From positions 100,830 through 164,829 of the forward strand of contig JAUNGP010000002.1 of the NCBI GenBank assembly GCA_030524345.1: 64,000 nucleotides of DNA. Direction: 5' to 3'. Origin of the DNA: Clostridia bacterium. Lineage in GTDB: Bacteria; Bacillota; Clostridia; TANB77; CAG-465. Below are positions 18,217 to 36,369 of this stretch, one piece after another; position 1 is the stretch's first letter; each line of letters begins with the position of its first letter. The position numbers and the translations under genes are program-made. The notes beneath the pieces are model-generated. The model was not told the origin of the DNA. It ran no database searches and was given only the letters and a program-made list of their open reading frames with translations.

Positions 18217-18291
18217 GGCCCCTTGGTCAAGCGGTTAAGACGCGACCCTCTCAAGGTCGAATCATGGGTTCGATTCCCGTAGGGGTCACCA
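18217..18291 (+). tRNA. tRNA-Glu (anticodon CTC)
   Basis: A 75-nt cloverleaf. The acceptor stem GGCCCCT pairs with AGGGGTC. The anticodon stem CGACC/GGTCG encloses loop CTCTCAA, so the anticodon is CTC. The T arm (GGGTTCGATTCCC) and an encoded CCA end are present. The 3' end is the integration site of the prophage; the intact gene is retained at attL. Confidence 0.95.
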
Positions 18292-18319
18292 TTATAGCAG
18301 GTTTTATACCTGCTTTTTT
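18279..18319 (+). repeat. attL core of the prophage (tRNA 3' end plus its terminator)
   Basis: 41 nt, identical to 59020-59060. The core covers the last 13 nt of tRNA-Glu and the intrinsic terminator AGCAGG-loop-CCTGCT followed by T6. Identity ends on the left at the tRNA T arm and on the right after the T run, as expected for tyrosine-recombinase integration into a tRNA gene. The two copies bracket about 40.7 kb containing all phage genes. Confidence 0.93.
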
Positions 18320-18437
18320 GTTTTCTATCAAATAACTATAAAATGCTATCAACTTACAGTTTCAATACTTTCAAGTATCTTTTTAAAATTTTATATATTT
18401 TCAATTTTTCTCAGATATATTTAAAATTCTTTCAATA

Positions 18438-18458
18438 TACTGTAAAATTTACTGTAAA
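18438..18458 (+). promoter_or_regulatory. Putative integrase arm-binding repeats at attL
   Basis: Two copies of TACTGTAAA (18438-18446, 18450-18458) followed by a T run. The same pair occurs just inside attR (58952-58960, 58963-58971) with 11-nt instead of 12-nt spacing. Paired repeats inside both ends of a prophage are typical arm sites. This is inference from position and sequence. Confidence 0.5.
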
Positions 18459-18478
18459 TTTTTTATAAAAAAAGAGAT

Positions 18479-18631
18479 CTAAAAAGATCCCTCTGAAATA
18501 TTAAATCTATCAATCATCCCTAGTCTAAAAATTTTTATAAAAATTTTTATATTACAATTAATAAATTTAATTTCTTCTTGTGTAAACAAATAAGAATTTG
18601 CCTTAATTACTTCTAAAACATATTCTTTCAT
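18479..18631 (-). CDS. Small hypothetical phage protein (50 aa)
   Basis: ATG at 18631 is preceded by AAGGAGCGATT, a good ribosome binding site. The product starts MKEYVLEVIKANSYLFTQEE and ends MIDRFNISEGSF, with no domain I recognise. It follows the 96-aa gene on the same strand by 23 nt and is the gene closest to attL. The pair may be accessory genes expressed from the prophage edge. Confidence 0.5.
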   Translation of the reverse strand: MKEYVLEVIKANSYLFTQEEIKFINCNIKIFIKIFRLGMIDRFNISEGSF

Positions 18632-18654
18632 AATCGCTCCTTCTTAAAGTTTAC

Positions 18655-18945
18655 TTAATAGCGTAATTTAATTATAACACAAATAGAGTATAAAGCAATA
18701 CTATTTGATTGTAAATTTTTTCCATTTTTTAAATCTATATTATTCCTCTCTATAAAGTCCTGTTGTTGCTTATTTAACTTAAATTCAAATTCGTACTTCT
18801 TAGATATAATTAGATCTAGCACTAAATTATACAATATAGAATGTTCTATATATACTTTTGTACTCTCTACTACTTCTTTTTGTATTTCTTCTAAATAATA
18901 TATAAGTGTTTTATTATAGATCTCTTTATAATTTATATCTTTCAT
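18655..18945 (-). CDS. Hypothetical phage-edge protein (96 aa)
   Basis: Starts MKDINYKEIYNKTLIYYLEE behind AAGGTGATT. Probably helical, with no membrane segment and no known motif. It lies between attL and the plus-strand accessory block and is divergent from that block. I do not recognise it. The strand differs from the neighbouring accessory genes, so it has its own promoter somewhere in 18946-19050. Confidence 0.6.
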   Translation of the reverse strand: MKDINYKEIYNKTLIYYLEEIQKEVVESTKVYIEHSILYNLVLDLIISKKYEFEFKLNKQQQDFIERNNIDLKNGKNLQSNSIALYSICVIIKLRY

Positions 18946-19059
18946 ATAATCACCTTTAATATTATGTGCTTTTTGGATCTTTTTATAAAATAAAATACTA
19001 CAGTATCAAGCATTTTAGAGGAATTTATAATAAATTTAAACTTTTTTTCAAAAAAAGTG

Positions 19060-19088
19060 TTGACATCGTTGCAACGATGTAATATAAT
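19060..19088 (+). promoter_or_regulatory. Promoter P1 with 18-bp palindromic operator
   Basis: TTGACA (19060-19065), 17-nt spacer and TATAAT (19083-19088). The perfect palindrome ACATCGTTGCAACGATGT (19063-19080) fills the spacer and overlaps the -35 box, so a bound dimer would block RNA polymerase. The same palindrome occurs in P2 (19499-19516). The adjacent RHH protein is the likely binder. Confidence 0.8.
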
Positions 19089-19115
19089 ATAAATATAGTA
19101 AGGGAGGTGATAATA

Positions 19116-19232
19116 TTGCTAAAGTTACTATTTAAGTTCTTAAAAAGAACCGCCAAAAAAGAGTCTACTCGATCATGGGCTGAAAGAGTAGACAGATGGA
19201 TTGAAGAGGACTTCGGAAAAAGCTCTTACTAA
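19116..19232 (+). CDS. Small basic protein (38 aa), TTG start
   Basis: First frame after P1. TTG at 19116 has AGGGAGGTGA 5 nt upstream. It reads MLKLLFKFLKRTAKKESTRS, then WAERVDRWIEEDFGKSSY: a basic amphipathic N-terminus and an acidic C-terminus. No homologue recognised. An 11-bp hairpin follows the stop. It may be a real small protein or a leader peptide for the regulator gene. Confidence 0.5.
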   Translation: MLKLLFKFLKRTAKKESTRSWAERVDRWIEEDFGKSSY

Positions 19233-19239
19233 AATCCAC

Positions 19240-19275
19240 AGAGAAAGAGAATATCTCTTCTCTTTCTCTATTATA
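19240..19275 (+). terminator. Hairpin between the 38-aa gene and the RHH gene
   Basis: AGAGAAAGAGA (19240-19250) pairs perfectly with 19259-19269. The following sequence ATTATATTATTT is only moderately T-rich, so it may be a partial terminator or attenuator that lowers expression of the downstream regulator. Confidence 0.5.
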
Positions 19276-19310
19276 TTATTTAATATTTAAATTGTCAAGG
19301 AGGCGATATT

Positions 19311-19499
19311 ATAAAAAAATTTGATGAAAAACAATATAAAATAGACTATGATAAGAAACATTATACATTTATATCTTTTAAATTAAAAAAGAAAGAAGCA
19401 TTAAAATTTAAAGAAAATTTAAAACGTGAAAATATTAGTATTACTGATTTTTTTAAAAAATGTATTGAAAATTATAAAGAAATTTTAAAAAAGTATTGA
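19311..19499 (+). CDS. Ribbon-helix-helix regulator with non-canonical start (Aca-like candidate)
   Basis: About 62 residues: KKFDEKQYKIDYDKKHYTFI, then SFKLKKKEALKFKENLKREN and ISITDFFKKCIENYKEILKK. The pattern (short beta strand, helix, ISITDFFKKCIENY helix) is that of Arc/CopG-type DNA-binding proteins. AAGGAGG at 19297-19303 is ideal, but the frame has no ATG, GTG or TTG; the possible starts are ATT (19308) or ATA (19311). Its TGA lies inside the -35 box of P2. It probably represses P1 and P2 through their shared palindrome. It could also be a start-codon mutant. Confidence 0.6.
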   Translation: MKKFDEKQYKIDYDKKHYTFISFKLKKKEALKFKENLKRENISITDFFKKCIENYKEILKKY

Positions 19500-19524
19500 C
19501 ATCGTTGCAACGATGTAGTATAAT
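19496..19524 (+). promoter_or_regulatory. Promoter P2 with the same 18-bp palindromic operator
   Basis: TTGACA (19496-19501), 17-nt spacer, TATAAT (19519-19524). The palindrome at 19499-19516 is identical to that in P1 and sits in the same place relative to the promoter. It drives the acidic-protein gene at 19695. Confidence 0.8.
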
Positions 19525-19566
19525 GAAATTAATAAGAAAGTTATGCTTCTTTAAAAAGCAAAAAAA

Positions 19567-19604
19567 GAGTATTTAGAACAATTCGCAAAACACTCTAAAT
19601 ACTC
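19567..19604 (+). promoter_or_regulatory. Structured 5' leader of the acidic-protein gene
   Basis: The leader from P2 to the ATG is about 165 nt. It holds an 11-bp hairpin (GAGTATTTAGA at 19567-19577 with 19594-19604) and a second pairing between ACAAGAAG near 19621 and CTTCTTGT near 19655. Neither is followed by a T run, so these are more likely translational or stability elements than terminators. Confidence 0.4.
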
Positions 19605-19694
19605 AAAAACAAACTACTTACAAGAAGTAATTTAAAATATTATAACATATAAATTTCTTCTTGTAAAGTAAAAAAATGAAAGGGGAAATTTATT

Positions 19695-19931
19695 ATGAAA
19701 AAATTTATAGGAGAATTTAAAAAAATCGAGAAAATTGTGAGAGAAGAAGATACAGAAAGAAAAGGAATAGCAGAAGAAGACGGAGAATATATACTAGTAG
19801 AAAAAGATGACGAAAGAGCAATAATGACAGTAGAAGTAGCATATGTTGATGGAGAATATTTAGTAGACTTTAATGAACCTTCAAAGTGGTACAATTCTAA
19901 TATCGTCTTAGGAATTTTTGAAAATATATAG
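19695..19931 (+). CDS. Small acidic phage protein (78 aa), anti-CRISPR candidate
   Basis: Starts MKKFIGEFKKIEKIVREEDT behind GAAAGGGGAAA. It is strongly acidic, with clusters EEDGEY, VEKDDER and VAYVDGEYLVDF, suggesting a compact beta-rich fold. I recognise no family. It is driven by the autoregulated promoter P2, next to an RHH regulator and upstream of CRISPR-repeat-like RNAs. That context resembles acr/aca loci, but no sequence similarity to a known Acr is claimed. Confidence 0.65.
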   Translation: MKKFIGEFKKIEKIVREEDTERKGIAEEDGEYILVEKDDERAIMTVEVAYVDGEYLVDFNEPSKWYNSNIVLGIFENI

Positions 19932-19947
19932 AAAGGATTTTAAAAAA

Positions 19948-20621
19948 ATGAAAAATTATATAGGATTAACTAGATCTACTTTTACAGTTATAGATCAAAA
20001 AAGTGTAAAAAAAGGTAATTATACTAGAGCATATTTATTATATAAATGTAGCAATTGTAACAGAGAAAGCTGGATACGTGCAGATTACTTTAAAAATATT
20101 AAATATTGCGTTTGTAATAACCCTACTCTATTTAAATGCAAGGATTACTCTAAAATAACAAAATATGGTATTACTTTTTTGGAACCTGTGGATAAAACTA
20201 AAAAGCGGGACAAAAGTTTGGAAATGTAAATGCAGTTGCGGAAAAATATTTTATGAAAAGCCTAACGAAATATTAAAAGGAAACAAAAAGTCTTGCGGTT
20301 GCAAAAAAATAAGATATACACCTGCTAACTTAGAAAAAGCTATTAACAAGCACTTAAAGGAAAATATTGTAGAAGGTACAAATCTGCAAATTTTAAGATT
20401 AAACAAATTAAAACAAAACAACACAAGTCGGACATCTAGGAGTTTGTTGGGATAAAGAAAGAAAAAAATGGATAGCAAAAATTAGATTTAAAGGTAAAAA
20501 CATATACCTAGGAAGATACAGTAATATAGAAGATGCTATAAAAGCACGTAAAAAAGCAGAAGAAAAGTATTTTAAGCCTATTTTAAAAAAATATAAAAAA
20601 GAAGACAAAGAAGATAGCTAA
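19948..20621 (+). pseudogene. Frameshifted AP2-domain phage protein with zinc motifs
   Basis: ATG at 19948 has AAAGGATTT upstream. Frame 1 carries YKCSNCNRESWIRADYF and ends at 20229. Frame 2 (from about 20200) carries WKCKCSCGKIFYEKPNEILK and SCGCKK. Frame 3 (from about 20430) carries GHLGVCWDKERKKWIAKIRF and YLGRYSNIEDAIKARKKAEE, an AP2/ERF-type DNA-binding domain as in phage HNH/AP2 proteins, ending at TAA 20621. Two +1 shifts are needed to join them. Its stop lies 9 nt before the promoter of the repeat-RNA cassette. Confidence 0.7.
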
Positions 20622-20629
20622 AAATATAG

Positions 20630-20658
20630 TTGACATTTATATTTTATTATGCTATAAT
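20630..20658 (+). promoter_or_regulatory. Promoter of repeat-RNA cassette A
   Basis: TTGACA (20630-20635), 17-nt spacer, TATAAT (20653-20658): a full consensus promoter. A perfect palindrome, GTAAGATCTTAC (20665-20676), lies at the expected start site and could be an operator or a 5' hairpin. Confidence 0.85.
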
Positions 20659-20678
20659 CTAGATGTAAGATCTTACAA

Positions 20679-20811
20679 GTTTAACTATTACACGGAGTGT
20701 ATTTAAATTAATACTTTAATATTTTAATTGGTTTAACTGTTACACAAGGTGTATTTAAATTAATATTTTGGAGCATTAATTTATAAACTGTTACACGAGG
20801 TGTATTGAGAG
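20679..20811 (+). repeat. Three CRISPR-repeat-like units of cassette A
   Basis: All three contain TACAC-NNN-GTGTA, a 5-bp stem with a 3-nt loop; loops are GGA, AAG and GAG. The unit starts are 52 and 51 nt apart, whereas the host array starts are 67 and 66 nt apart. Confidence 0.8.
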
Positions 20812-20836
20812 TAGTTTTTAAAGCTACTCTTTTTTA
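20808..20836 (+). terminator. Terminator of cassette A
   Basis: AGAGTAG (20808-20814) pairs with CTACTCT (20824-20830), followed by TTTTTT. Confidence 0.85.
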
Positions 20837-20934
20837 TTTGCAAAATTAGAAATAAAAATAGAGTATTTAGACTAATTTTAAAAAATATAAATATAAATAT
20901 AAAAAGAAGACAAAGAAAACGACTAAAAATATCG

Positions 20935-20963
20935 TTGACATTTATATTTTATTATGCTACAAT
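20935..20963 (+). promoter_or_regulatory. Promoter of repeat-RNA cassette B
   Basis: TTGACA (20935-20940), 17-nt spacer, TACAAT (20958-20963). Spacer and flanks are near-identical to the cassette A promoter, showing duplication. An imperfect counterpart of the cassette A palindrome, GTAAGAAATTCTTAC, lies at 20970-20984. Confidence 0.82.
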
Positions 20964-20969
20964 TTAAGT

Positions 20970-21138
20970 GTAAGAAATTCTTACATGTTTAACAATTACA
21001 CATAGTGTATTTAAATTAGTATTTTGAAGTTTTTATAGGACCTAGAAGTCTAATTTATTGTTTAACTTTAACACGTGGTGTATTTTAAAAAAGTAAGCTA
21101 TGTGTATGAGAGTAGTTTTATACTGCTCTTTTTTTATT
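20970..21138 (+). ncRNA. CRISPR-repeat-mimic RNA B (candidate RNA anti-CRISPR)
   Basis: A second cassette built like A, with two 30-nt units at 20987-21016 and 21060-21089, 43 nt apart. Unit 1 matches the host repeat at 23 of 30 positions and ends in ATTTAAAT. Unit 2 matches 22 of the first 26 positions, then diverges. Both keep a short stem (TACAC-ATA-GTGTA; ACAC-GTG-GTGT). A terminator hairpin with T7 follows at 21109-21136. The AGAGTAG stem motif is shared with the cassette A terminator. Confidence 0.68.
20987..21089 (+). repeat. Two CRISPR-repeat-like units of cassette B
   Basis: 30-nt units with the same GTTTAAC start and central stem-loop as cassette A. The 43-nt gap and the loss of the 3' handle in unit 2 argue against a functional CRISPR array. 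Confidence 0.75.
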
Positions 21139-21146
21139 TATAACAT

Positions 21147-21180
21147 AAAAGAGTAGAACAAATTGAAGTTCTACTCTTTT
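21147..21180. terminator. Bidirectional terminator hairpin
   Basis: AAAAGAGTAGAAC (21147-21159) pairs perfectly with 21168-21180. A and T runs flank the stem, so it can act on both strands and insulates the cassettes from the gene at 21334. Confidence 0.7.
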
Positions 21181-21284
21181 AAAATTTCTTTTATATTTTA
21201 TCTTTTTAATCTAGCATTATTGTAACATAAAAAAATGCATTGTAAAGCGTTTCGACAAAAGTAGACCTATTATGCATATTTTTC

Positions 21285-21313
21285 TTGACTTTGTTGGACG
21301 TGCCTTGTATAAT
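21285..21313 (+). promoter_or_regulatory. Promoter of the 309-aa membrane protein gene
   Basis: TTGACT (21285-21290), 17-nt spacer, TATAAT (21308-21313). The ATG at 21334 is 20 nt downstream behind AAAGGTGATGA. Confidence 0.75.
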
Positions 21314-21333
21314 TATGTCAAAGGTGATGATGT

Positions 21334-22263
21334 ATGAAAAGTAAGAAATTAATTGTCTATATTGCATTAGCAATTGTTTCGCTCTCTTGCTTAATAGGAT
21401 TTATTTTTTTACCTGTTCAGCATACTGTAGTAGATACGATAATAGCTGAAGATAGTACAAAAATAATATATATTATTCAAGACGAAACATCTTTTTTAGG
21501 TAAATCAATAGCTGAATGGAGAATTGTAATATCAATAATAGGATTTATAGTAGGAACAACTTTAACTTGCACAGAATACAATAGTAATAAAAAACAAAAA
21601 CAACAAGAAAAAGGTGCTGAGATCGCAAGGTTATTCTCCGATGAATTAGTAGATAAATGTTGTATTTTAGGAGAAGTAATAACGAAGTCATCTTTACAGT
21701 CTCTACTTAAATTAGATGTAATTAACGATAGTGATATACATAATTTTGACGTAACAGAAATAATAGATCTATTTAAAGACAAAAATATATTTTCTAAATA
21801 CGAAGCTATATGTAGAACAAATGAATTAGATCAAATATATTATAGACTATTATCAATAAGAATATCCGCTAAAAAATATAACGACATAAAAGATAAAGTA
21901 TTTTCTGATGATGAAGCTAAAGAATTATTTATTTTAGATAATAAAAATCTTCCATTCAGATTTATGTTTTTAGTTTCGGAAGTACTAAATAAATTAGAAG
22001 CTACATCAATGCATATTGCTAGTCAATCAACATCATCAATTTATATCTATCAATCATTACATCAAATGTTCTTACGAACAATTAGAATACTAGTAATATC
22101 AATAGCATACACCAACGAAAATTATGCTAACAAATACTATACAAATATAATACATGTATATAATATGTGGATGAAGATGTTAAAGAAACAACAAAAAAAT
22201 GAAAAGAAAAATAAAGAAAAAGCTTATAAGAAATTAAATCCAAAAATAAATACAGTTCAATAA
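21334..22263 (+). CDS. Two-helix membrane protein of unknown function (phage accessory gene)
   Basis: 309 aa. Helix 1 (IVYIALAIVSLSCLIGFIFL, residues about 8-27) is followed by a short outside loop and helix 2 (IVISIIGFIVGTTLTC, about 63-78). A basic coiled linker (NKKQKQQEK) leads to a helical cytoplasmic domain of about 215 residues and a Lys-rich tail. The start has a good ribosome binding site. It has its own promoter and terminator, as expected for a prophage accessory gene. A superinfection-exclusion or abortive role is possible but not shown. No family recognised. Confidence 0.75.
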   Translation: MKSKKLIVYIALAIVSLSCLIGFIFLPVQHTVVDTIIAEDSTKIIYIIQDETSFLGKSIAEWRIVISIIGFIVGTTLTCTEYNSNKKQKQQEKGAEIARLFSDELVDKCCILGEVITKSSLQSLLKLDVINDSDIHNFDVTEIIDLFKDKNIFSKYEAICRTNELDQIYYRLLSIRISAKKYNDIKDKVFSDDEAKELFILDNKNLPFRFMFLVSEVLNKLEATSMHIASQSTSSIYIYQSLHQMFLRTIRILVISIAYTNENYANKYYTNIIHVYNMWMKMLKKQQKNEKKNKEKAYKKLNPKINTVQ

Positions 22264-22280
22264 TGAACTGTATTTATTTT
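22248..22280 (+). terminator. Terminator of the 309-aa gene
   Basis: AAATACAGTTCA (22248-22259) pairs with TGAACTGTATTT (22264-22275), followed by ATTTT. The stem includes the stop codon region. Confidence 0.75.
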
Positions 22281-22419
22281 ATATCTCTAGTCATCAACCT
22301 TTAAAGGTACCTCTTTCATCCAATCAACAAACACATTAATCTCCTCCTTTAAATAAATATAATAATATCTATTCTACTTATATATTATAATAAAATATTT
22401 AAAAAATCAATACTTTTTA

Positions 22420-22449
22420 CCAAAAAATGGTGGTAGGTTAAGCCTACCA
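22420..22449 (-). terminator. Terminator of the phage late operon
   Basis: On the minus strand TGGTAGG (22449-22443) and CCTACCA (22437-22431) form the stem, followed by CCATTTTTTGG. It lies directly after the endolysin stop codon and ends the minus-strand late transcript. Confidence 0.75.
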
Positions 22450-22451
22450 AT

Positions 22452-23396
22452 CTATATTTTTAGAACTTGTCCTACATATATCAGATCAGGGTTTGCTATA
22501 TTGTTCTTCTGTACTAAACTATTTACAGTAGTTCCAAATTTGTTTGCTATTTTTGTAAGATTATCTCCTGCTACTACTGTATATGTTTTTGTGGAGCTAT
22601 TTTGAGATAGTTTTAATACCTGTCCTACATATATTAAATCTTTGTTAGATATATTATTAATTTGTGCTAAGTAATCAACACTAGTATTATATCTACTTGC
22701 AATAGCACTTAGAGTATCTCCTGCTTGTACAACATAGCTGTTCACTGTATTATTCACTGAACTTTTAAGCTTTAATATTTGTCCTACATATATTAGATCC
22801 GGATTTGATATATTATTTAAAGCTACTAGTTCATTCACAGTAATATTAAATCTATTTGCTATACTTGATAACGTATCTCCTGCTACAACTTGATACTCTG
22901 TTGTATCAGTATCTATATAATTGTTACTTGTACTATTACTTGTTTCTGTATCAAACCTAGTCAAATCGTATTGTTCTATTATATTTATAAGCTTAGAACT
23001 ATAACTGGGATCTGTTGCATATCCGTCTTCTCTTACTTTGTTACAGACATCTCTATAGTTGTAATTGCCTCTAAGATTAGCATATCTGTCATATGTATTA
23101 AATAATGCACTATGATCTGCTAAGCTCTCCGCCCAGGAAGGATATTTTCTAAAGTTAGCACTTACAGTGCACCAATTTCCATTCAGATATTCTTGTGTAT
23201 TAAATGTACAATATGAACCTCTATAGTCTCCTTTTATACCAAACAAGTTGTAGTTAGGTGCTTGTGCTAGTGCACTTCTTCCCCAGCTGCTCTCGAGTAT
23301 TGCCTGAGCTATTGTTAGGCTTGCAAGGATTTTACTTTTTTTCATATCTTCCCTTGCTAAAGTTCCTATTTTTTCTATAAATTCTGCATTTGTCAT
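22452..23396 (-). CDS. Endolysin: glucosaminidase with three LysM domains
   Basis: 314 aa. Residues 1-147 form a glucosaminidase (PF01832-type) domain that cleaves peptidoglycan glycan; the probable catalytic Glu is E35 in [12 protein letters not shown]. Three LysM repeats follow at about 168-210, 221-263 and 272-314, each ending NPDLIYVGQ or NKDLIYVGQ, which bind the wall. No signal peptide, so it relies on the holin. It is last in the late operon, downstream of the holin. Confidence 0.93.
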
Positions 23397-23481
23397 AAAT
23401 CTTCATTCCTTTCACTTTAGTTTACAATAAGTGTCTTTCATATTTGCCTTTTAAGGCGTTTTTTCAAAAGGGGTATAGTAA

Positions 23482-23697
23482 CTACATCTCTGTGTTTTCC
23501 CTGTTGTAACTATCTGTTGATATTTTTAATATCACTCCTAAAAATGTATCTACTGCCATTATAGTTCCAGATATTTCTTTTGCATATGGTAATCCCCATA
23601 ATCCCGCAATCGCTACATACGCTGTTGCTAAAGCTGGTAATAATAACTGGGCTATCCATTTTAAAATATCATAAGTTTTGTTACTCATATATATCAC
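23482..23697 (-). CDS. Phage holin (r1t/phi-LC3 type)
   Basis: 71 aa with two hydrophobic helices: ILKWIAQLLLPALATAYVAI and a second covering ISGTIMAVDTFLGVILKIS. The phrase GLWGLPYAKEI between them is typical of short Gram-positive phage holins. The likely start is the second Met (MSNKTYDILK, residue 4). It forms the membrane lesion that releases the endolysin encoded next. Confidence 0.85.
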   Translation of the reverse strand: MIYMSNKTYDILKWIAQLLLPALATAYVAIAGLWGLPYAKEISGTIMAVDTFLGVILKISTDSYNRENTEM

Positions 23698-24009
23698 CTA
23701 CCTTTTTGCCATAAGCTTTTCCCATTTGTCATGAATATAGCTATTTCCTTTTAAATCTTTTGTGTAATGATCGTATAAATCATAAGCTCTTTGGATTTGG
23801 CACTCATCTTTATACACTCCATTTTCCACATCTGCAAGAAAATCAACAAGATAGTTCCTACACTGATTTTTATCTATATCATCAATTTTAGAGTGGAGTG
23901 GTTTAAATTGCTTGTCTAATATCTTATTTAAAAATTTCTTTAAAAAGCTTATTATTACTGTTGTAGCTGTAATAAGAGAAGCTAATTGTAAAATAATCTC
24001 TTTAATCAT
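23698..24009 (-). CDS. Membrane-anchored lysis accessory protein
   Basis: 103 aa: one N-terminal membrane helix (ILQLASLITATTVIISFLKK), then a soluble helical region with Lys-rich segments. Its position directly before the holin gene and its topology resemble XhlA/BhlA-like accessory proteins, but sequence similarity is weak by eye. Stop and the following start almost touch (23698/23697), so the two are coupled. Confidence 0.7.
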   Translation of the reverse strand: MIKEIILQLASLITATTVIISFLKKFLNKILDKQFKPLHSKIDDIDKNQCRNYLVDFLADVENGVYKDECQIQRAYDLYDHYTKDLKGNSYIHDKWEKLMAKR

Positions 24010-24455
24010 TCTACCACCTCAGTTATTTTCCCTTCTGTTATCTCTTCCCAAGCAGCTGGATATGCTTCAGGAGACCAAACACAGCCATCAACTTTGCAAA
24101 TGTACTTTTTGTTGTTATAAAGTACCTTGTCCCCTGTATTGTAACAATCGTGCGAACCTGTAGGCTGAACATATTCTTTGTATTCATTTGTATCTTCTGT
24201 ACCTTCTCCTTTTAGCTCTCTCACCGCTTTATCAAGCTCTATCAATCTTGTAAAAACTTCTTCAACTCTCTTTTCTATGCTTGCATAACTATTCTCTGCA
24301 AGTGCATTTTCTCTAGCTAAAGTGATAAGTTCTGCTTTTTGCTCATCTGTGATTTTTGACTCCAACCAGATCACATCTATTTTTTGCAAGATATCTTCTA
24401 ATTTATAATTTTTATTTATGATAACATTTTTTACTATTTCATACATATTACTCAC
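24006..24455 (-). CDS. Tail/lysis-region protein with C-terminal carbohydrate-binding module
   Basis: 149 aa. Residues 1-85 are helical (KITDEQKAELITLARENALA). The C-terminal 60 residues (YVQPTGSHDCYNTGDKVLYN, then KYICKVDGCVWSPEAYPAAW) match the CBM5/12 chitin-binding fold with aromatic ligands, found on many clostridial phage tail-associated proteins. It overlaps the fibre gene by 8 nt and the next gene by 4 nt. It probably helps the virion bind cell-wall sugars. Confidence 0.8.
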   Translation of the reverse strand: MSNMYEIVKNVIINKNYKLEDILQKIDVIWLESKITDEQKAELITLARENALAENSYASIEKRVEEVFTRLIELDKAVRELKGEGTEDTNEYKEYVQPTGSHDCYNTGDKVLYNNKKYICKVDGCVWSPEAYPAAWEEITEGKITEVVE

Positions 24456-26913
24456 CCCCTATTTGACTAACTTGATTAGCTTCTAGTGATGATAGTCTGC
24501 TTTCTATGTTTCCGAACTTCTCATCTAAAAAATGCTGTAAATCTTCGTTGCATGTTAAGTCGAAAGTCCCTGCATCTATGCTAATGTTATTTAAGCCTGT
24601 CTGTAATTCAAGATTGTTAAGTAGGACCTGATTTTCTTGTGATAAAGTTATGTATTCGTATTGACTTGCATCTAAAGGATAAAACATATAGACAGGTTCA
24701 CCTGCATCATTTTTTTCTTTAAACAAAGCTTTTAATTTTTCTATTGTATCTATGCTATATTTTATAGGGATTCTAATATAAGCTACGGAAGGAGTCCCTT
24801 TTACTAATACTATTCTATTATTTTCTTTATCTGAGAAATAATTTGATAAAGCATTAAAATATTCAGCAGGAGTAGCTGCAATAATGACACTGTATTCATT
24901 ATAGTCCTCTCCATCCGCCAACTTGTTCAAAGTCTCATCTCCTGTAAAATTATATTTTTTTATTACTTTTTCTAACTTCCATAGGTTGTCTTCATCTTTG
25001 TATATTCTGTCTTTGTATCCTCCTATTGCACCGTTAAAGCAATCTTCTGGTAAAACTAATTCTTTTCTATATCCATCATATTGCATATATTCTTCTGCTT
25101 TTTCATAAGTTAACTGCGGATAGATTATGCAGTCTACTGTATTGCCTGCAAGGATTTCAGCATAGACGTTACATATATTCACGCTTTCTTTAATATTTAC
25201 TCCTGCATTTGCTATTGATAAAAATCCTAATTCGATCGTTCTAATAACTATTCTAGCCCCTGTTATTGCACTCCCTTGAATATATGCATATAGCTTTCCT
25301 GTTATATTTTTACATTGAATTTTCTTTTTGCTCGGCTCATTGACTAGAATTTGCAAGTTTGTATTTTTCTCAGCTGCTCCTACACATTTTAATCCTAAAT
25401 CGTTCTGGACTGTAAATGTAATTCCATTTTTTGTAATCATATATCCAGGCTTGTAATTCAGATTGTCTATATAAAGTATATTTTCTTTTGAATTTTGAAT
25501 TGATATATTTTGCACTATATTTTCAATTTCGCTCGGAAAATCTAGTGAAGGACTTTCTCCGTATCGCTCGTATTCTTTTACTTCTGTACCTTCTGCTAAA
25601 GTAATGTAAATTGTATAATTATTAAAAATTGTTCCTTCTAAAAAATAGAGTGCATTATATAATATACCTGTATCATTTTCTTGTTTTGTATATGTTGCAA
25701 CCTTACTATATTCTCCTGTTTCTATATTTTGCATAGTAAGCCTGTCTGAGTTACCTGCATATTTTAGTCCTACATTTTTTAAACTTCCTTCCCCTGATGT
25801 TACAATCTTTAAGGAATAGCTTTTTCCCGTCATAGCCTCCTGCTCGCTTTGACTATATCCCCAATCAAGTCTAATGTTTCCGTTTTCAGTAGCAGTCCCA
25901 TTTATCATTATTGATCCGTCTTCGTTTCTGTTTACAACAATTCCTGACTGAGTTATAGGATATACAGCGTTAGGATTAAATAGATTATACCCTTCCCTAG
26001 TTTCTTGTATTAATTGTTCTCCTTTTATAACAAACATATCTAGCTTAGAATTTTCTGTATAAACTTGTGCAAAGTTCACATCTTGTACTGTAGTTTTCAA
26101 AGCTCTAGCATACTTGTTATCACTTATTTCACGCTCATTTTCAAGTGAGCTCTCTACTTCTTCTTTTGCTTCTAAAGTATTATCTCTAGCAACTATAGTA
26201 TCTTCTTTTGCTTGTTCTACTGCGCTTTTATCTTCTTCTACAGATGTTTTTATTTCTATTGCTTCTGTTACTGCTTTGTCTATTTCTGCTTTCTTTTCTT
26301 CGTAATTCTTGTTAAGCTCGTTTTCCTTAGCTACATAAGCTTCTTCTAATCTCTCTAGCACGCTTTGATACTCTTTATCTATATTATCTACTGCCTTATT
26401 TTCTATTGCTTTTACATTATCTTTTATCTGTTGTATCACAGAAGTTACAAGGCCCTGTATATCTGTTTTAATCTGTATAGTATCATCTAAGGCCTGTTTT
26501 GTTTCTTCAAGTATTTCATTCATTTTGTTGATATATAGTTCATAGCTTGATATATCTGCTAATGCTTCACTTTCAAGTGCATCTTTTTCATATGCCCCTC
26601 TTGAAATTCTAAAATACTCTAAATTAGAAGTACACCTACTTTCTAATACGTCATTTTCAATTTTATTTCCGTAAACTCCAATATAAATTTTTCCTACTTC
26701 TTCTGCAATTTCTTGAGGAATGATACACTCATTATCTACTAACGCCTTTTTATAAGTCTTATCATTCGCTGTAAAAATAGCTATTTTGTCATATTCATTC
26801 CATTCTTTTGTAAAAGAAAAATGACACTTTATGTAATTAAAAGTGCCACTTGCTATGTATTTTTTATCTATTTTTATTATATTATCATCAATATTTATAT
26901 TTAATGTTTTCAT
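24448..26913 (-). CDS. Tail fibre / upper baseplate (BppU-like) receptor-binding protein
   Basis: 821 aa. The N-terminus (MKTLNINIDDNIIKIDKKYI, then FTKEWNEYDKIAIFTAND) is the BppU-like attachment domain of Gram-positive phage fibres. Residues about 130-275 are coiled coil. The rest is beta-rich with jellyroll-like segments, suited to receptor binding. The gene contains the protospacer matching host CRISPR spacer 2 (25772-25807). The spacer would encode a similar peptide, so it came from a homologous gene. Confidence 0.82.
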   Translation of the reverse strand: MKTLNINIDDNIIKIDKKYIASGTFNYIKCHFSFTKEWNEYDKIAIFTANDKTYKKALVDNECIIPQEIAEEVGKIYIGVYGNKIENDVLESRCTSNLEYFRISRGAYEKDALESEALADISSYELYINKMNEILEETKQALDDTIQIKTDIQGLVTSVIQQIKDNVKAIENKAVDNIDKEYQSVLERLEEAYVAKENELNKNYEEKKAEIDKAVTEAIEIKTSVEEDKSAVEQAKEDTIVARDNTLEAKEEVESSLENEREISDNKYARALKTTVQDVNFAQVYTENSKLDMFVIKGEQLIQETREGYNLFNPNAVYPITQSGIVVNRNEDGSIMINGTATENGNIRLDWGYSQSEQEAMTGKSYSLKIVTSGEGSLKNVGLKYAGNSDRLTMQNIETGEYSKVATYTKQENDTGILYNALYFLEGTIFNNYTIYITLAEGTEVKEYERYGESPSLDFPSEIENIVQNISIQNSKENILYIDNLNYKPGYMITKNGITFTVQNDLGLKCVGAAEKNTNLQILVNEPSKKKIQCKNITGKLYAYIQGSAITGARIVIRTIELGFLSIANAGVNIKESVNICNVYAEILAGNTVDCIIYPQLTYEKAEEYMQYDGYRKELVLPEDCFNGAIGGYKDRIYKDEDNLWKLEKVIKKYNFTGDETLNKLADGEDYNEYSVIIAATPAEYFNALSNYFSDKENNRIVLVKGTPSVAYIRIPIKYSIDTIEKLKALFKEKNDAGEPVYMFYPLDASQYEYITLSQENQVLLNNLELQTGLNNISIDAGTFDLTCNEDLQHFLDEKFGNIESRLSSLEANQVSQIGGE
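25772..25807 (+). other. Protospacer for host CRISPR spacer 2
   Basis: 36 nt matching the spacer at 63562-63597 in 31 positions; mismatches at spacer positions 2, 26, 29, 31 and 36. The three bases 5' of it are CCT (25769-25771), a PAM known to work in clostridial type I-B systems such as that of C. difficile. Confidence 0.85.
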
Positions 26914-26921
26914 ATAATCAC

Positions 26922-27404
26922 CTAAATATATTCAACTGCTTCTACTGTTAAAAAACAATCTAAAAATTGTAATGTACCAGTTGCACTACAAAAAAGTGCT
27001 ACACTAATCTCGTCACCTTCTACTACATCTACTAGTATCGGAGCTACTGTAACGCCTTGATGATACGCATTAAGCCCTCCACCTATGTAATTTTCGGCGA
27101 TACTTGAATCTCCTTTTTTTAGGCTAATGCCTTTGTCTCCTGTAATGCTAGAAGTGTTAATTCCGTTTGAGTGTGCCGAAACAAGTACCTTAGAGATTCC
27201 TGCGCCTATTTTTATTTTTCCGTTGTCTATTGTAAGTTTATCACCTATCTTGCAATATTCAGTGCCTTGAAGCAATGTATTTCCCCACGCTTCCGTAATG
27301 TTGATACTTCCTTTAGCCTTTTTCATTGTAATTATATTTTTTGCAGTATTTTTTTTCAAGCTCTCTATTTCCTCTTCTAATTCTAAGATCTTAGGCTTAC
27401 TCAT
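26922..27404 (-). CDS. Tail-associated protein with N-terminal coiled coil
   Basis: 160 aa. Residues 1-30 (KILELEEEIESLKKNTAKNI) form a coiled coil. The remainder reads as a beta-sandwich with alternating hydrophobic strands (IKIGAGISKVLVSAHSN, EISVALFCSATGTLQFLDCF). It lies between the tail protein and the fibre, overlaps the upstream gene by 8 nt, and may be a head-fibre or accessory baseplate protein. No specific family recognised. Confidence 0.7.
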   Translation of the reverse strand: MSKPKILELEEEIESLKKNTAKNIITMKKAKGSINITEAWGNTLLQGTEYCKIGDKLTIDNGKIKIGAGISKVLVSAHSNGINTSSITGDKGISLKKGDSSIAENYIGGGLNAYHQGVTVAPILVDVVEGDEISVALFCSATGTLQFLDCFLTVEAVEYI

Positions 27405-27738
27405 TAGTTCCCCACTCTCCTCTCACAACAAATTCAAACAGTTTTTCAACCTCTGCAGACCAATCTTTTAATTGAATCCTATTACTAATACTATCCTTAT
27501 TTCCTACCTCTATATAATGATCATCTAAAACTAATTTACATCCTTGATAATATACATCTAATACTCCATCCCCTACTTTATACATAATAGGTATAGTTAA
27601 ATCTGTATTAGCTTCTATAATCTCACCTGTTATGAGACTTTCTTGAACAATAGTTTCATAATTCGATATTTCATTTAACACTTCAGCTTCGATCGGTGTA
27701 GTTTCGTCAGGCTCGTCTTTAAATATTCTTCTATTCAT
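27397..27738 (-). CDS. Phage tail/baseplate accessory protein (113 aa)
   Basis: Starts MNRRIFKDEPDETTPIEAEV behind AAGGAGGAAGGAAGTA. It contains a VYYQGCKLVLDDHYIEVG beta-rich segment often seen in small baseplate-adjacent proteins. The ATG overlaps the TAG of the extended upstream frame (27731-27733), which supports a frameshift upstream. Function within the baseplate is unknown. Confidence 0.7.
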   Translation of the reverse strand: MNRRIFKDEPDETTPIEAEVLNEISNYETIVQESLITGEIIEANTDLTIPIMYKVGDGVLDVYYQGCKLVLDDHYIEVGNKDSISNRIQLKDWSAEVEKLFEFVVRGEWGTNE

Positions 27739-30296
27739 TACTTCCTTCCTCCTTATCTTTTTTCATATATCCATATACTTGTAATATTGCACTCATCATA
27801 CCTGTTTTTAATGCCATGCTTACTAAATTAGCTTCTTCATTTCCAAATTCAGGCTTAGTATCATCGCTTTGTATTTTAAATCTATTAAAGCCTTTTTTTA
27901 CTTCAGACGCTATATCAGAAGTTTTTATAAATTCTAATTTTGTATTTCCATCACCAGGAACGGACGGAGTGTATCCATTACTTCCAAGGCCGCCCCTCTA
28001 TATTAGAATAAGATTCAGTATCTTGATCATAATACATACTTCCTAAATACCAATCTCTATACATAGATGCATCTGAACTTGATTTATACAACTTTACCTT
28101 CCTAGAATATCCGTACCCTTTCAAATCTGCATTATATCCATACACTTTTAAAGGAAAATGACTTAGTATAATATAGGCACTTTCTATTGTAAATCCATCA
28201 GGAATATATGCATCTATTGTAAGCTTAGTAGCCATAACAGAACTATTCAGAGAATTTGCCCTAAATCCAATTTGACCATAATTTCCACTTATACCATCGT
28301 TCATATTTGGCGTCCCTATAAATGTTAAATTAGTAAGTAATCCCCTTCCTCCTATAATCTCAGATCCATCATCTAAAAGTATATTTCCACTAAATGTACC
28401 ATTTTTAGCTTCTATACTTCCATCTTCAAGTATTTTAAAATTTTCGTTAGCAGTTACCAAACCTGTCATATCAATTTGGCCAGGTTTCAAATTTATCTTT
28501 GCGATTAATTCATCTGTATCAGTTTTTCTTGCGACTTCTAAATTAAGTTCATCCGCCATTTGTTGTATCTTAGAGTTAGTCTCCACTTTTGTGGAATAAT
28601 ATTTATTTAATTCTGTATTATACAAATATGTAGCTTCCATTTTCCAGTTTTCAAATTCTTTTATATATAAGTAATTTGTACCTGAAAAAAGAGCTATGTC
28701 TAGCTCTCCTAAAATTTCCTCTTTTGCTTCATTATATATAGTGTATACACCATTATTCTTTTCTATTTTTCTTAATATTTTAACAATACATTTACCTTTA
28801 TCTTGATTAAATTCTACTACAAAATTATCTCTTATATTATTGTATTCTCTAAGAGGATTTTGAAAATAAAATTTGAACTCCTTTTTCATTGAAGGATCAC
28901 TTCGTGGAAACAAGCTTTTGCTTGGATATAACGTTTTGCTGGGATATATAAGTGGCTTATTTGCCTTTCTACTATTTCTTGATACTACTAATGTTACAGT
29001 TGCTCCTGCCTTTCGTGGAAACAAACTTTTGCTTGGAAATAGTTTGTTACTTGGATATATTGCTCCTTTTGTATTTTCAGGATATATAATCCATTCTAAA
29101 ATATTAGTATTCAATGCATCTTCTAATTTTAATTCATTTACTCCTTTTACTGTTTTTGTAAAATCATAAAATGCCGATACTTCATTTCTAATACTATCTA
29201 CATTCTGTTTTACTGTAGCTATTTTCTCACTATTTTCATCTGTTTCTTGAACAAGCTGTTCTATTTCACCATCAATTTGATTTATTTTACTTTGTATACG
29301 CCTGATATTCTTCTTTTCTGATACTACATTTCTTGTAGTTTCTTCTCTTTCTTTAGATTGAATTTTACTAGAAATGCTTGCTCTAAATTTACCTGCATAT
29401 TCTATATTTCCTTGATATATAACTCTTTTTCCATCTATTATTAATATATCTCCAAAATCTAAAGCAGGATCTATATTGCTTTCACACTCAAAACTATATG
29501 CTTCAAAATCTTTATATTTATTATAAATATTTTGTAATTGTTCATTATCTACAATAAACATATTATCTGAATTTATCCATACTGTATTGTTAGTTTTGTC
29601 TCCTACAAAATAGTTTTGTATACCATCTTCATAAGCAATCCTACTTACTTTAAATTTATCTCCCCAAGTATAGTTTTTAAAATATTTTATATCAACATTC
29701 GCTATATCCTCGCCTATACTTTTTATATACAACTTTCCATCTCTTCCAATATGAGCAAATCCTCCTGCTTGTTCTGCAATATAACTTATGTATTCTCTAG
29801 CACTTACTGTGCTATCATATACTGATATTTCTTTATTATCATTCAAAAAAGAAGTAGAACCAAGTTCTACTCCTGCTTTTGAACAAATATCTATTAATAT
29901 ATCTTTTAAAGTTTTTGGATATGTTAATGTACTTCCATCATAATTAAACTCAAATTTCATCATATTATCTACTAAATTTATTGACACAGTATAACTATCT
30001 TCTTCACTTAATTTATCCACATTAAAGTACCCAATAGGAACTATTTCATTTACTATACCAGATTCAATATATACCTGTGTTATAGGTTCTTTTATTTCAT
30101 CTTTATGTAATTTTAAGCTTATAGAATTAGAAACCACAGAGCCAAAACAAAATTCATCGTTGAAAAGCTTGTATGTTCCACTAAATCCTAATATATGCTT
30201 TTTATTTACTTCTACACCATTGATATATACTTTAAGTAAATGCCTTGTACTAGGTTTATATATTAAAGATTTATAAGTTTCACTAGTATTATACAT
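27731..30296 (-). pseudogene. Tail hub / minor structural protein, C-terminal frameshift
   Basis: The main frame (30296-27978, 772 aa) has an N-terminal hub-like region (ISLKLHKDEIKEP, GYFNVDKL, AREYISYIAEQAGGFAHIGR), a coiled coil near 330-385 and paired motifs with YPSK and SLFPR. It stops shortly after NIEGR. Removing one G at 27993-27996 gives IEGGLGSNGYTPSVPGDGNT and continues for about 80 residues to TAG at 27731, overlapping the next ATG. The extension is collagen-like and then helical. Either a real mutation or an indel error; the shorter protein may still work. Confidence 0.75.
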
Positions 30297-30708
30297 TGTT
30301 TGCCTCCTCTACTGCGTTTATTTGTGCTTCTGTGAGTTCTTTTTGCATTAGTGTAAATGATGTTTTCCATGTCGTTTTAATAGTATTTTCATCTATCTCT
30401 GTTTGAATCATAGTGACTTTTCTTTTAGATACTCTAAATTTAGCATTTTCAAGTATTCCACCTTGTACAACAGGTATTTTAATTGTAAGTACCAAAGGAT
30501 TTTTATATGTTTCTTGTATTAATTCTTCTGCTTCTTCCTCTGTATTAAAATCCCATGACATTGAAAGTTTTAATAATCCAACAGCAATGGGGTTATCAAT
30601 TAAACTACCATCTACAATACTTGAATAACTATCTTTATCTGTATCCTCTATATCTGCACTGTATGAGGAAGGTGTCTGTAATGTTTTATTTCCTCTTTTC
30701 CATAACAT
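30289..30708 (-). CDS. Phage tail protein, distal-tail position (139 aa)
   Basis: 139 aa, beginning MLWKRGNKTLQTPSSYSADI. The C-terminal half (FRVSKRKVTMIQTEIDENTI, then WKTSFTLMQKE) is beta-rich. It lies between tape measure and tail hub, the usual position of a distal-tail component, and resembles the DUF6711 tail proteins. It overlaps the hub gene by 8 nt. Confidence 0.7.
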   Translation of the reverse strand: MLWKRGNKTLQTPSSYSADIEDTDKDSYSSIVDGSLIDNPIAVGLLKLSMSWDFNTEEEAEELIQETYKNPLVLTIKIPVVQGGILENAKFRVSKRKVTMIQTEIDENTIKTTWKTSFTLMQKELTEAQINAVEEANNV

Positions 30709-30723
30709 ATAATCCCCTCCTTA

Positions 30724-33561: not shown

Positions 33562-33623
33562 GGTAATAAAAAATCCCCTTTTTAAAGAGGATGTAAGCAG
33601 TTTAGTGTCTTGCTTAGGACATG

Positions 33624-33652
33624 TTGATTTTACCAGATTTTGGTATTATAAT
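33624..33652 (+). promoter_or_regulatory. Promoter of the plus-strand accessory gene 33678
   Basis: TTGATT (33624-33629), 17-nt spacer, TATAAT (33647-33652); the ATG follows 25 nt later behind GAAAGGAAGGTGAT. It points against the late operon. Confidence 0.72.
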
Positions 33653-33677
33653 GTCAATCAGAAAGGAAGGTGATATC

Positions 33678-34139
33678 ATGTTTGAAAAAGTTTCTTATAT
33701 TTTCGCCATTGCTTTAGGTCTTTCTGCAGTAATTTCACCTATTTTTACTACATACTTAAATAATAAACATCAATTGAGGATTAAACAAATTGATGTATTT
33801 GAATCTAAAAAATCGAAAGCCATAAATGATTTTTTAGAATGTTGTTATAATTTAAAAAATAATTATAATGATGAAAATTTCTTAAAGTGTAAATTATCTA
33901 TTGTTAATCTAGGCTTATATATTTCAAACGATAATCGTGATATATTAAACTGTATGATAGATACATTTAACAATAAAAGCTTTCCGAAGGATTTCTTTTA
34001 TACTGAACTAGATAAATGGGCTGAACAAATGCACCAAGATACAATTAATGATTTTACAAGTAAATCATGTCTAAGCAATGTAAAAGCCCAAATGTTAAAA
34101 ATAAAATCCAAATCACATAGATCACATAAATCCAGGTAG
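33678..34139 (+). CDS. Membrane-anchored accessory protein (153 aa), antisense to the late operon
   Basis: ATG at 33678 with AAAGGAAGGTGAT upstream. One N-terminal helix (VSYIFAIALGLSAVISPIFT) is followed by a helical cytoplasmic domain with NKHQLRIKQIDVFESKKSKA and several Cys, and a basic tail. The arrangement resembles short membrane proteins of prophage accessory loci. It has its own promoter and terminator, so it can be expressed in the lysogen. Function unknown; superinfection exclusion is one option. Confidence 0.75.
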   Translation: MFEKVSYIFAIALGLSAVISPIFTTYLNNKHQLRIKQIDVFESKKSKAINDFLECCYNLKNNYNDENFLKCKLSIVNLGLYISNDNRDILNCMIDTFNNKSFPKDFFYTELDKWAEQMHQDTINDFTSKSCLSNVKAQMLKIKSKSHRSHKSR

Positions 34140-34215
34140 TTTCTGGATTTATCTTTTTATGCCAAAACATTACCGCTAATATTGAGCCTATTATTAATAT
34201 AAATCTCGCTAACAC
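34054..34215 (-). CDS. Small membrane protein (53 aa), GTG start
   Basis: GTG at 34215 has AAGGAGGGAGAGATA upstream, a strong site. The product has two hydrophobic helices (LARFILIIGSILAVMFW and WIYVIYVIWILFLTFGLL) with a short charged turn. It overlaps the 3' end of the plus-strand gene and its terminator. It lies in the minus-strand late direction. Existence is supported mainly by the ribosome binding site and helix pattern. Confidence 0.42.
   Translation of the reverse strand: MLARFILIIGSILAVMFWHKKINPETTWIYVIYVIWILFLTFGLLHCLDMIYL
34128..34160 (+). terminator. Terminator of the plus-strand accessory gene
   Basis: AAATCCAG (34128-34135) pairs with CTGGATTT (34143-34150), followed by ATCTTTTTAT. 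Confidence 0.65.
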
Positions 34216-34277
34216 TATCTCTCCCTCCTTTTTTAGGCATAATAAAAGAGAATAGATTTTTCTATTCCCTTAATTTC

Positions 34278-35340: not shown

Positions 35341-35343
35341 AAT

Positions 35344-35511: not shown

Positions 35512-35512
35512 A

Positions 35513-35920: not shown

Positions 35921-35932
35921 TCAATTTTCTAC

Positions 35933-35961: not shown

Positions 35962-35967
35962 TAAATT

Positions 35968-36357: not shown

Positions 36358-36369
36358 AAAATATAAAAT

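What the first reader, a model, noticed from the sequence alone, without database searches (positions are those of the whole stretch)
20630..21138. Two phage cassettes that mimic host CRISPR repeats: candidate RNA anti-CRISPR locus
Each cassette has a full promoter, a palindrome near the start site, 30-nt units like the repeat of the array at 63.5 kb (up to 26 of 30 identical) and an intrinsic terminator. Unit gaps are 21, 22 and 43 nt instead of 36-37, so they would not make normal guide RNAs. RNA anti-CRISPRs (Racr) made of solitary or few repeats are established for other phages. A tandem pair in a type I-B lysogen, with three and two repeat units, is an unusual form and fits a decoy for Cas6 or Cascade subunits.
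Basis: partly seen in the sequence, partly recalled or inferred. Interest (0 to 1): 0.95.

Follow-up and report, generated by a model that had tools for sequence, protein, structure and literature searches.

The report
Phage decoys of host CRISPR repeats
A prophage that its own host's CRISPR spacers match carries two short cassettes, each with a strong promoter match, two or three copies resembling the host's CRISPR repeat and a terminator match, which are predicted to make decoy RNAs that would tie up the host's CRISPR proteins.

Summary
Window 20630-21138 has two tandem duplicated cassettes: near-perfect promoter, start-site palindrome, repeat-like units (3 and 2; up to 26/30 identical to the host repeat), aberrant gaps (22, 21, 43 nt; native 34-39) and an intrinsic terminator. 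The units form a more stable hairpin than the host repeat; between the copies the first unit's stem and handle are unchanged while gap and loop drift. Nine further distinct multi-unit cassettes from eight other sources share the plan. The gaps have no convincing guide target, whereas the gaps of two host CreR-like elements do in the same test. Most likely an RNA anti-CRISPR, but of a multi-unit form: it fails the published definition (solitary repeat, >=90% identity), and the SRUFinder screen discards such loci by rule. Expression, Cas6 binding and inhibition are untested. New variant of a known kind.

The parts
20630..20658 (+). promoter match of cassette 1, TTGACA-17-TATAAT with TG before the -10
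   Evidence: 12 of 12
20665..20676 (+). palindrome GTAAGATCTTAC at the expected start of the transcript (5' hairpin or operator)
   Evidence: role inferred
20679..20708 (+). unit 1, full, handle ATTTAAAT
20709..20730 (+). gap 1, 22 nt
20731..20760 (+). unit 2, full, 26/30 identical to host repeat
20761..20781 (+). gap 2, 21 nt
20782..20811 (+). unit 3, hairpin kept, handle lost, runs into the terminator
20807..20835 (+). intrinsic terminator of cassette 1 (stem-loop 20807-20831)
20935..20963 (+). promoter match of cassette 2, TTGACA-17-TACAAT with TG before the -10
   Evidence: 11 of 12
20970..20984 (+). palindrome GTAAGAAATTCTTAC
20987..21016 (+). unit 4, full, stem and handle identical to unit 1
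21017..21059 (+). gap 3, 43 nt
21060..21089 (+). unit 5, altered handle; a decayed third unit appears to follow at about 21085-21107 (inferred)
21108..21134 (+). intrinsic terminator of cassette 2 (stem-loop 21108-21130)
18279..59060 (.). prophage, bounded by a 41-nt direct repeat (18279-18319 and 59020-59060) at the tRNA-Glu 3' end
1..6110 (-). host type I-B genes: cas3 (part, to about 1865), cas5b 1878-2660, cas7b 2670-3590, cas8b 3602-5458, cas6b 5430-6110; rest of cas3, cas4, cas1, cas2 just left of the window
58095..58130 (+). self-targeted site, 36/36 to a main-array spacer, PAM CCG
58196..58230 (+). self-targeted site, 34/35, mismatch at position 30, PAM CCA
53019..53055 (+). self-targeted site, 36/37, mismatch at position 3, PAM CCA
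51582..51619 (+). older target site, two spacers with 5 and 7 mismatches, PAM CCA
25772..25807 (+). older target site, 5 mismatches to a spacer of the 63.5 kb array, PAM CCT

Best explanation
Window 20630-21138 holds two tandem cassettes (promoter match, host-repeat-like hairpin units, terminator match) in a prophage that the host's own spacers match, and they are likely RNA anti-CRISPRs: their transcripts would be bound and cut by the host's type I-B Cas6 and are predicted to load Cas proteins onto guide RNAs of the wrong length that target nothing, starving the real crRNAs. Shown here by sequence: the anatomy, the duplication, first-unit stem and handle unchanged between the copies while gap and loop drift, full-length cas genes, self-targeting spacers with a common PAM, no convincing target for the gaps, and the same plan in other mobile elements. 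Inferred: transcription (about 170 nt); cleavage by Cas6 just before ATTTAAAT of units 1 and 2 (the 8-nt handle is recalled knowledge of type I-B), giving a 52-nt product (8 handle + 22 gap + 22 repeat) instead of the native ~66; the handle-less last hairpin holding Cas6 on a fragment still joined to the terminator; short products seeding Cascades that do not license Cas3 (shown in print for a type I-F1 system, PMC7296934 abstract). Units that fold more stably than the host repeat would also be good Cas6 ligands. The confidence given here is for an RNA anti-CRISPR; for the wrong-length pseudo-crRNA step in particular I give about 0.45, and the plain Cas6-sponge rival shares the rest.
For: Host has full-length I-B cas6, cas8b, cas7b, cas5b, cas3, cas4, cas1, cas2 and five arrays. 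6 of 54 spacers match the prophage with 0, 1, 1, 5, 5, 7 mismatches (two more stand at 9), 6 of 6 with CC at -3/-2; 270 shuffled spacers never below 10; 0 of 54 below 10 in 91,471 bases of other host DNA. Four units fold at -2.7 and one at -1.6 kcal/mol, host repeat 0.0. Unit 1 against unit 4: 0 of 17 stem and handle positions changed, 2 of 3 loop, 1 in the 5' flank; gap 7 of 22 (Fisher p 0.012 for gap against stem plus handle). In 35 units from window and relatives the stem covaries (score 0.310, shuffles 0.095 +/- 0.018, slid pairings at most 0.076). Handle kept (>=7/8) in 19 of 21 internal and 1 of 11 terminal units of 11 distinct cassettes. 15 of 21 gaps in these lie outside the native 34-39 nt. 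Gaps of the window: no CC-PAM target with <=1 mismatch in the own genome, while the promoter-match test finds targets for two host elements.
Against: No expression or binding data. Self-targeting could be tolerated through a protein Acr; of the prophage ORFs scanned for a family, 0 of 10 hit NCBIfam and 1 of 8 hit Pfam (an HTH), so unknown proteins abound. The 36/36 site has PAM CCG, not CCA/CCT, perhaps an escape; the integrase gene that holds it is split into two ORFs. No other genome of 191 (own included) or 385 (own included) showed these cassettes, so their own conservation is untested. Handle loss in the last repeat also occurs in 7 of 19 native arrays, so it is array-like, not a decoy mark. 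6 of 21 gaps in the cassettes are of native length and 4 longer, so short guides are not universal. The covariation rests mainly on one pair (15-19), which also varies between native arrays; the search patterns fixed most of the other stem bases, and the outermost pair forms in only 7 of 35 units. One gap-3 seed match of 12 with CCT exists in the genome.
Confidence: 0.7

Rival explanations
1. CreR-like guide RNA: the gaps act as short guides that bring Cascade to a host promoter, for instance that of cas, and silence it.
For: Two host genomes carry the same plan (two units, short gap, handle-less last unit) upstream of cas6, with gaps matching a nearby site over 15 and 21 positions, counting every sixth position as free, both with PAM TCA. 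Silencing cas would also be an anti-CRISPR effect.
Against: For the window's gaps the best seed runs near the cas promoter are 9, 9 and 8, at or below the 95% points of shuffles (12, 9, 9) and without a CC PAM. Own-genome targets with <=1 mismatch: none; with 2 mismatches, self sites left out: 7, 0 and 1 against reversed-pattern controls of 17, 1 and 0.
Confidence: 0.1
2. Phage mini-CRISPR array whose gaps guide the host system against competing phages.
For: Repeats, promoter and terminator as in arrays; viral mini-arrays are known (PMC11656645, passages).
Against: Mini-array repeats are described there as identical to the host's and most spacers as matching related viruses; here the units are 19-26/30 identical and differ from each other, gaps are 22, 21 and 43 nt, and gap 3 finds no match covering 80% of it in 50,697 phage records (63 records with partial matches) and no exact match of a 20-nt piece in viral contigs. 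Gaps 1 and 2 were not searched in viruses.
Confidence: 0.06
3. Decaying remnant of a captured host array without function.
For: Degenerate units; unit 5 handle and a third unit of cassette 2 look eroded.
Against: Promoters 12/12 and 11/12; stems and handles of the first units unchanged between copies while gaps drift; stem more stable than in the host repeat; same plan elsewhere.
Confidence: 0.09
4. Pure Cas6 sponge: each hairpin works alone, as in a solitary-repeat Racr, and handles and gaps do not matter. This too is an RNA anti-CRISPR, so its odds lie inside the 0.7 of the main reading.
For: In RacrIF1 the product upstream of the Cas6 site carries the inhibition and handle changes are tolerated (PMC10651486 section 6).
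Against: Handles are kept almost only where another unit follows (19 of 21 against 1 of 11), which suggests that handle-gap-hairpin products matter; but the search patterns asked for one intact handle, and native arrays show a milder form of the same bias (12 of 19 keep it).
Confidence: 0.25

Closest known systems
Racr, RNA anti-CRISPRs made of solitary repeat units (RacrIF1 and others, PMC10651486)
   Same: phage-borne, intergenic, promoter-driven mimic of the host subtype's repeat, host has that subtype
   Different: three and two units per cassette, two cassettes in tandem, units under 90% identical to the repeat, in cassette 1 a last unit without handle that runs into the terminator, subtype I-B (the discussion names I-C, I-E, I-F and V-A as tested)
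Virus-borne mini-CRISPR arrays (PMC11656645, passages; PMC6858448 seen in listing only)
   Same: few repeats with spacer-like gaps in a virus
   Different: repeats neither identical to the host's nor to each other, gaps of aberrant length, no viral target found for the one gap searched
CreR / CreA crRNA-like regulatory RNAs (PMC12737573, passages)
   Same: crRNA-like RNA outside an array; the two CreR-like elements found here share the two-unit, short-gap plan
   Different: in a prophage, not beside cas; no match to the cas promoter above shuffles
AcrIB2, protein inhibitor of type I-B (PMC10732046, passages)
   Same: prophage-borne, against type I-B
   Different: a protein, not an RNA

Membership tests
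Racr (solitary repeat unit) | repeat-like sequence in a mobile element, outside genes, matching the host's CRISPR subtype | tested here: met
Racr (solitary repeat unit) | predicted promoter upstream | tested here: met
Racr (solitary repeat unit) | solitary, no other repeat-like match within 100 bp (SRUFinder rule) | tested here: not met
   three and two units, 51-73 nt apart start to start
Racr (solitary repeat unit) | >=90% identity to a known repeat (SRUFinder rule) | tested here: not met
   best unit 26/30 (87%) to the host repeat; the SRUFinder repeat database was not at hand
Racr (solitary repeat unit) | small RNA that binds Cas6 and inhibits interference | not testable with these tools
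   needs RNA and protein work
mini-CRISPR array | repeats identical to those of the host system | tested here: not met
mini-CRISPR array | spacer of native length | tested here: not met
   gaps 22, 21, 43 against 34-39
mini-CRISPR array | spacer matches another virus | tested here: inconclusive
   gap 3 without a match covering 80% of it or an exact 20-nt match; gaps 1 and 2 not searched in viruses
CreR | guide matches the promoter of the cognate cas operon | tested here: not met
   (runs at or below the 95% point of shuffles); the test worked on two host elements; the cassettes lie in the prophage, not beside cas
canonical CRISPR array | near-identical repeats at constant spacing | tested here: not met
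   the host's own arrays have 64-69 nt spacing, cassettes 52, 51, 73

The most novel reading that the evidence does not exclude
A distinct form of RNA anti-CRISPR: multi-unit cassettes whose pre-folded repeat hairpins outcompete native repeats for Cas6b and are cut into handle-bearing pseudo-crRNAs of wrong length, so that whole Cascades are poisoned, not only Cas6 and Cas7. The form recurs in phages and a phage-like plasmid, serves against type I-B, and is missed by the solitary-repeat screen, which discards clustered units.
Probability: 0.4. Interest if true: 0.86.

Novelty: new variant of a known kind. Interest (0 to 1): 0.76.

Why it matters
If true, RNA anti-CRISPRs extend to type I-B and to a multi-repeat form that the published screen rejects by rule, so their number is underestimated. 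The natural test bed is unusually clean: cas genes, the main array with two close self-targeting spacers, and the prophage with the cassettes lie within about 65 kb of one contig, so removing the cassettes gives a direct survival test. It also joins three known things on one plan (array, CreR, Racr), which makes their evolutionary order testable.

Tried and rejected
Relatives by BLAST: 48 of 191 genomes (own included) had a match to the cassette DNA. None outside the own genome spans promoter and units except one in G021, which is the end of a regular array; the rest are short promoter-like stretches or pieces of arrays by their coordinates; not all 48 were opened. Phage records: 32 weak hits, of which I opened one, Dulem virus 30, which proved to hold units. 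Neighbour protein 21334-22263: no viral relative, two genus relatives among 57 genomes searched (own included), without cassette units. Pattern scans: 4 stretches, 1 judged real by eye; 29 stretches, which I sort as 9 multi-unit cassettes (L024, L078, L084, L085, L087, L088, L090, L094, L100; L078, L084 and L094 also lie in an open stop-to-stop frame on the other strand, L100 was not tested for that), 2 regular arrays (L075, L092), 2 single units outside long frames (L080, L098), 16 inside open frames; 22 genome stretches, 10 contexts read, 2 cassettes (L111, L112); 18 stretches, nothing new; 111 stretches (80 listed), no new two-unit cassette by the unit scan. One search used a wrong spacing and gave 7 stretches that look like coding chance matches; corrected (6 stretches, only L087 looked real). 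Order-wide scan: 8 of 385 genomes matched, only the own genome as a cassette. Class-wide: 4 of 391 (own, two host CreR-like, one array end). Left out of counts: the five look-alike stretches L078, L084, L088, L094, L100 (four contigs, 168-180 of 180 positions identical) counted as one cassette; L087:3625 left out of the alignment for its 4-nt loop; L084, L094 and L100 not in the alignment; array L034, whose repeat has another handle, left out of the 19 native arrays; single units L080 and L103 are in the alignment, not in the cassette table; the Clostridioides plasmid element L276 read by eye only.

Guide targets were tried at the cas promoter, the cas operon, the prophage, neighbouring host DNA and the array leader, then at genome scale (no exact match, 57 with one mismatch against 79 for the reversed pattern): nothing above controls.

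Full report
What is there. Two cassettes lie head to tail at 20630-20838 and 20935-21138, between the left attachment site and a glucosaminidase/LysM lysis-type gene (22452-23396), on the + strand while the neighbouring structural genes are on the - strand. Each has a near-perfect promoter match with 17-nt spacing and TG before the -10 (12/12 and 11/12), a palindrome at the expected start, repeat-like units and an intrinsic terminator. Units are at 20679, 20731 and 20782 in the first and 20987 and 21060 in the second; gaps are 22, 21 and 43 nt. The copies are a duplication (87% over 71 nt from 20600 and 20905; alignments) that begins upstream of the promoter, in what looks like the 3' end of an open frame ending ...KEDKEDS (the copy reads ...KEDKEND) behind an HNH-like stretch. 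The last part of cassette 2 looks like a decayed third unit (inferred).

More than chance. Four of the five units differ from the host repeat at 7 or fewer of 30 places, within 411 nt and on one strand; 200 shuffled prophages gave on average 0.2 sites with 8 or fewer, at most 2. A relaxed unit motif is found in the window at these five places and in the three repeats at 63.5 kb only.

Host system. The window's left end holds cas6b, cas8b, cas7b, cas5b and most of cas3 (808 aa in full in L242), followed to the left by cas4, cas1, cas2 and a 40-repeat array. They look full-length against their family models; activity is not shown. Three other arrays lie on other contigs (8, 5 and 3 repeats). Native spacers are 34-39 nt (54 spacers from the five arrays).

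Self-targeting. The prophage is bounded by a 41-nt direct repeat at the tRNA-Glu gene (18279-18319, 59020-59060) and carries terminase, portal, major head, tape measure, repressor and integrase genes (closest terminases 61% in Fusobacterium and Clostridioides phages). Six of 54 host spacers match it: 36/36 at 58095, 34/35 at 58196, 36/37 at 53019, and older matches with 5, 5 and 7 mismatches; two more stand at 9. The six have CC at -3/-2 (CCG, CCA, CCA; CCA, CCT, CCA). CCA is called a consensus PAM for the C. difficile I-B system (PMC10732046, passages). 270 shuffled spacers never came below 10 mismatches, and none of the 54 came below 10 in 91,471 bases of other host DNA; the rest of the genome was not tested. 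The 58196 match (PAM CCA, mismatch at distal position 30) is the best candidate for a live target; the perfect one has CCG and may be an escape. Self-targeting with intact cas genes is commonly taken as a sign of an inhibitor in the genome (established practice, recalled), but it does not say which one.

Conservation inside the element. Unit 1 against unit 4: stem (10) and the remaining handle (7) show no change, the loop 2 of 3, the 5' flank 1, the gap 7 of 22. Four units fold at -2.7 kcal/mol and one at -1.6; the host repeat does not fold on its own (0.0). The units thus keep the host's AAC box and, where full, the handle, and strengthen the hairpin.

Relatives. Pattern scans and BLAST led to other multi-unit cassettes: Dulem virus 30 (one clear, one weak), a Clostridiaceae plasmid CP026602.1 (up to six units; an XkdX-family gene, a phage tail-type name, lies nearby), a Clostridium MAG contig and viral contigs L024, L085, L087, L090 and the L078 group. 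With the two window cassettes these are 11 distinct cassettes in the table. Best promoter matches score 8-12 of 12 (8, in two, may be chance). A terminator was found in 9 of the 11, within 4 nt of the presumed Cas6 cut in 5 of them; in the other two an RBS and a ribbon-helix-helix gene follow instead. Gaps: 11 of 21 shorter than native, 6 native, 4 longer. Across 35 units the stem covaries (score 0.310; shuffles 0.095, none of 500 as high; slid pairings at most 0.076); in L087 and L112 units of one locus have different, compensated stems. Limits: the patterns fixed most stem bases, the free pair 15-19 carries most of the covariation and also varies between native arrays, related sequences can exceed such shuffles, and the outermost pair forms in only 7 of 35. 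The handle is kept in 19 of 21 internal units and 1 of 11 terminal ones. Two cautions: the search patterns asked for one intact handle per stretch, and 7 of 19 native arrays also have a handle-poor last repeat, so this is the logic of an array, kept more strictly in the cassettes (10 of 11), not a mark of decoys.

Guide test. If the gaps were guides, they should have targets. None has a CC-PAM target with one mismatch or fewer in the own genome; with two mismatches there are 7, 0 and 1 non-self sites against 17, 1 and 0 for reversed patterns. One isolated 12-position seed match of gap 3 exists. The cas promoter region shows nothing above shuffles. A positive control came from the class-wide scan: two host genomes carry two-unit elements upstream of cas6, and their gaps match a site close downstream over 15 and 21 positions (every sixth position free; 99% points of shuffles 12), both with PAM TCA; in one the mismatches fall at positions 6, 12 and 18. 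These fit CreR, the cas-silencing crRNA-like RNA (PMC12737573, passages). So the test can find guides, and the phage gaps fail it.

Mechanism. Best reading: strong transcripts whose hairpins capture Cas6b; cuts before ATTTAAAT release handle-gap-hairpin fragments of 52 nt (native about 66) that recruit Cas5, Cas7 and Cas8 into Cascades that target nothing. Complexes on shortened spacers form but truncated R-loops do not trigger Cas2/3 in type I-F1 (PMC7296934, abstract), and a non-targeting crRNA alone lowers interference in the Racr study (PMC10651486, passages). In RacrIF1 handle changes are tolerated, so a plain Cas6 sponge remains a real rival. All steps after the DNA anatomy are inferred.

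Membership and novelty. Racr as defined uses solitary repeats; SRUFinder discards full matches within 100 bp of each other and hits under 90% identity (PMC10651486 section 30). The cassettes fail both, so they are filed as working like a Racr, a new variant. The discussion of that paper names I-C, I-E, I-F and V-A as tested, and a word search of it for I-B gave 0. In the listings of searches (3 of 3 papers; 30 of 137; 20 of 34; no paper) of the open library I saw nothing that by title or abstract start describes multi-unit RNA anti-CRISPRs; subscription papers and preprints were not searched. Of the papers I read: PMC10651486 abstract, sections 4, 6, 9, 11, 12, 30 and passages; PMC7296934 abstract; PMC11656645, PMC10732046 and PMC12737573 passages.

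Noticed in passing
L289 (G641:C1:1511000-1530000) near 9441 and L290 (G524:C39) near 10000, minus strand: Host two-unit elements upstream of cas6 with gaps matching a site close to the cas operon start (runs 15 and 21, PAM TCA; mismatches at 6, 12, 18 in one): likely CreR-type RNAs.
   Followed up: partly
window 57545-58363 and 58548-58970: The prophage integrase is split into two ORFs in different frames; the perfectly matched self-target lies in the first.
   Followed up: no
window 63465-63627: Degenerate side array of three repeats; one of its spacers matches prophage 25772 with 5 mismatches.
   Followed up: partly
L029:2522-2665 and L111:1180-1323: An identical 47-aa ribbon-helix-helix protein follows the cassette in Dulem virus 30 and in a Clostridium MAG; an Aca-like regulator is possible (label recalled). 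Three promoters in this part of Dulem virus 30 share a TTGCAAAACGAGTGCA box (2372, 2730, 3137).
   Followed up: partly
window 19918-20621: HNH-like gene region in broken frames; its 3' end appears to have been duplicated together with the cassette.
   Followed up: partly
L276 (Clostridioides sp. plasmid pESS17301a), about 800-930: Another two-unit element with a handle-poor second unit, seen by eye.
   Followed up: no
L288 (G010:C1:71645-71706): The last repeat of a native array has lost its handle and abuts a terminator-like hairpin, as in the phage cassettes.
   Followed up: yes
window 21146-21181: A third, strong terminator-like hairpin follows cassette 2.
   Followed up: no
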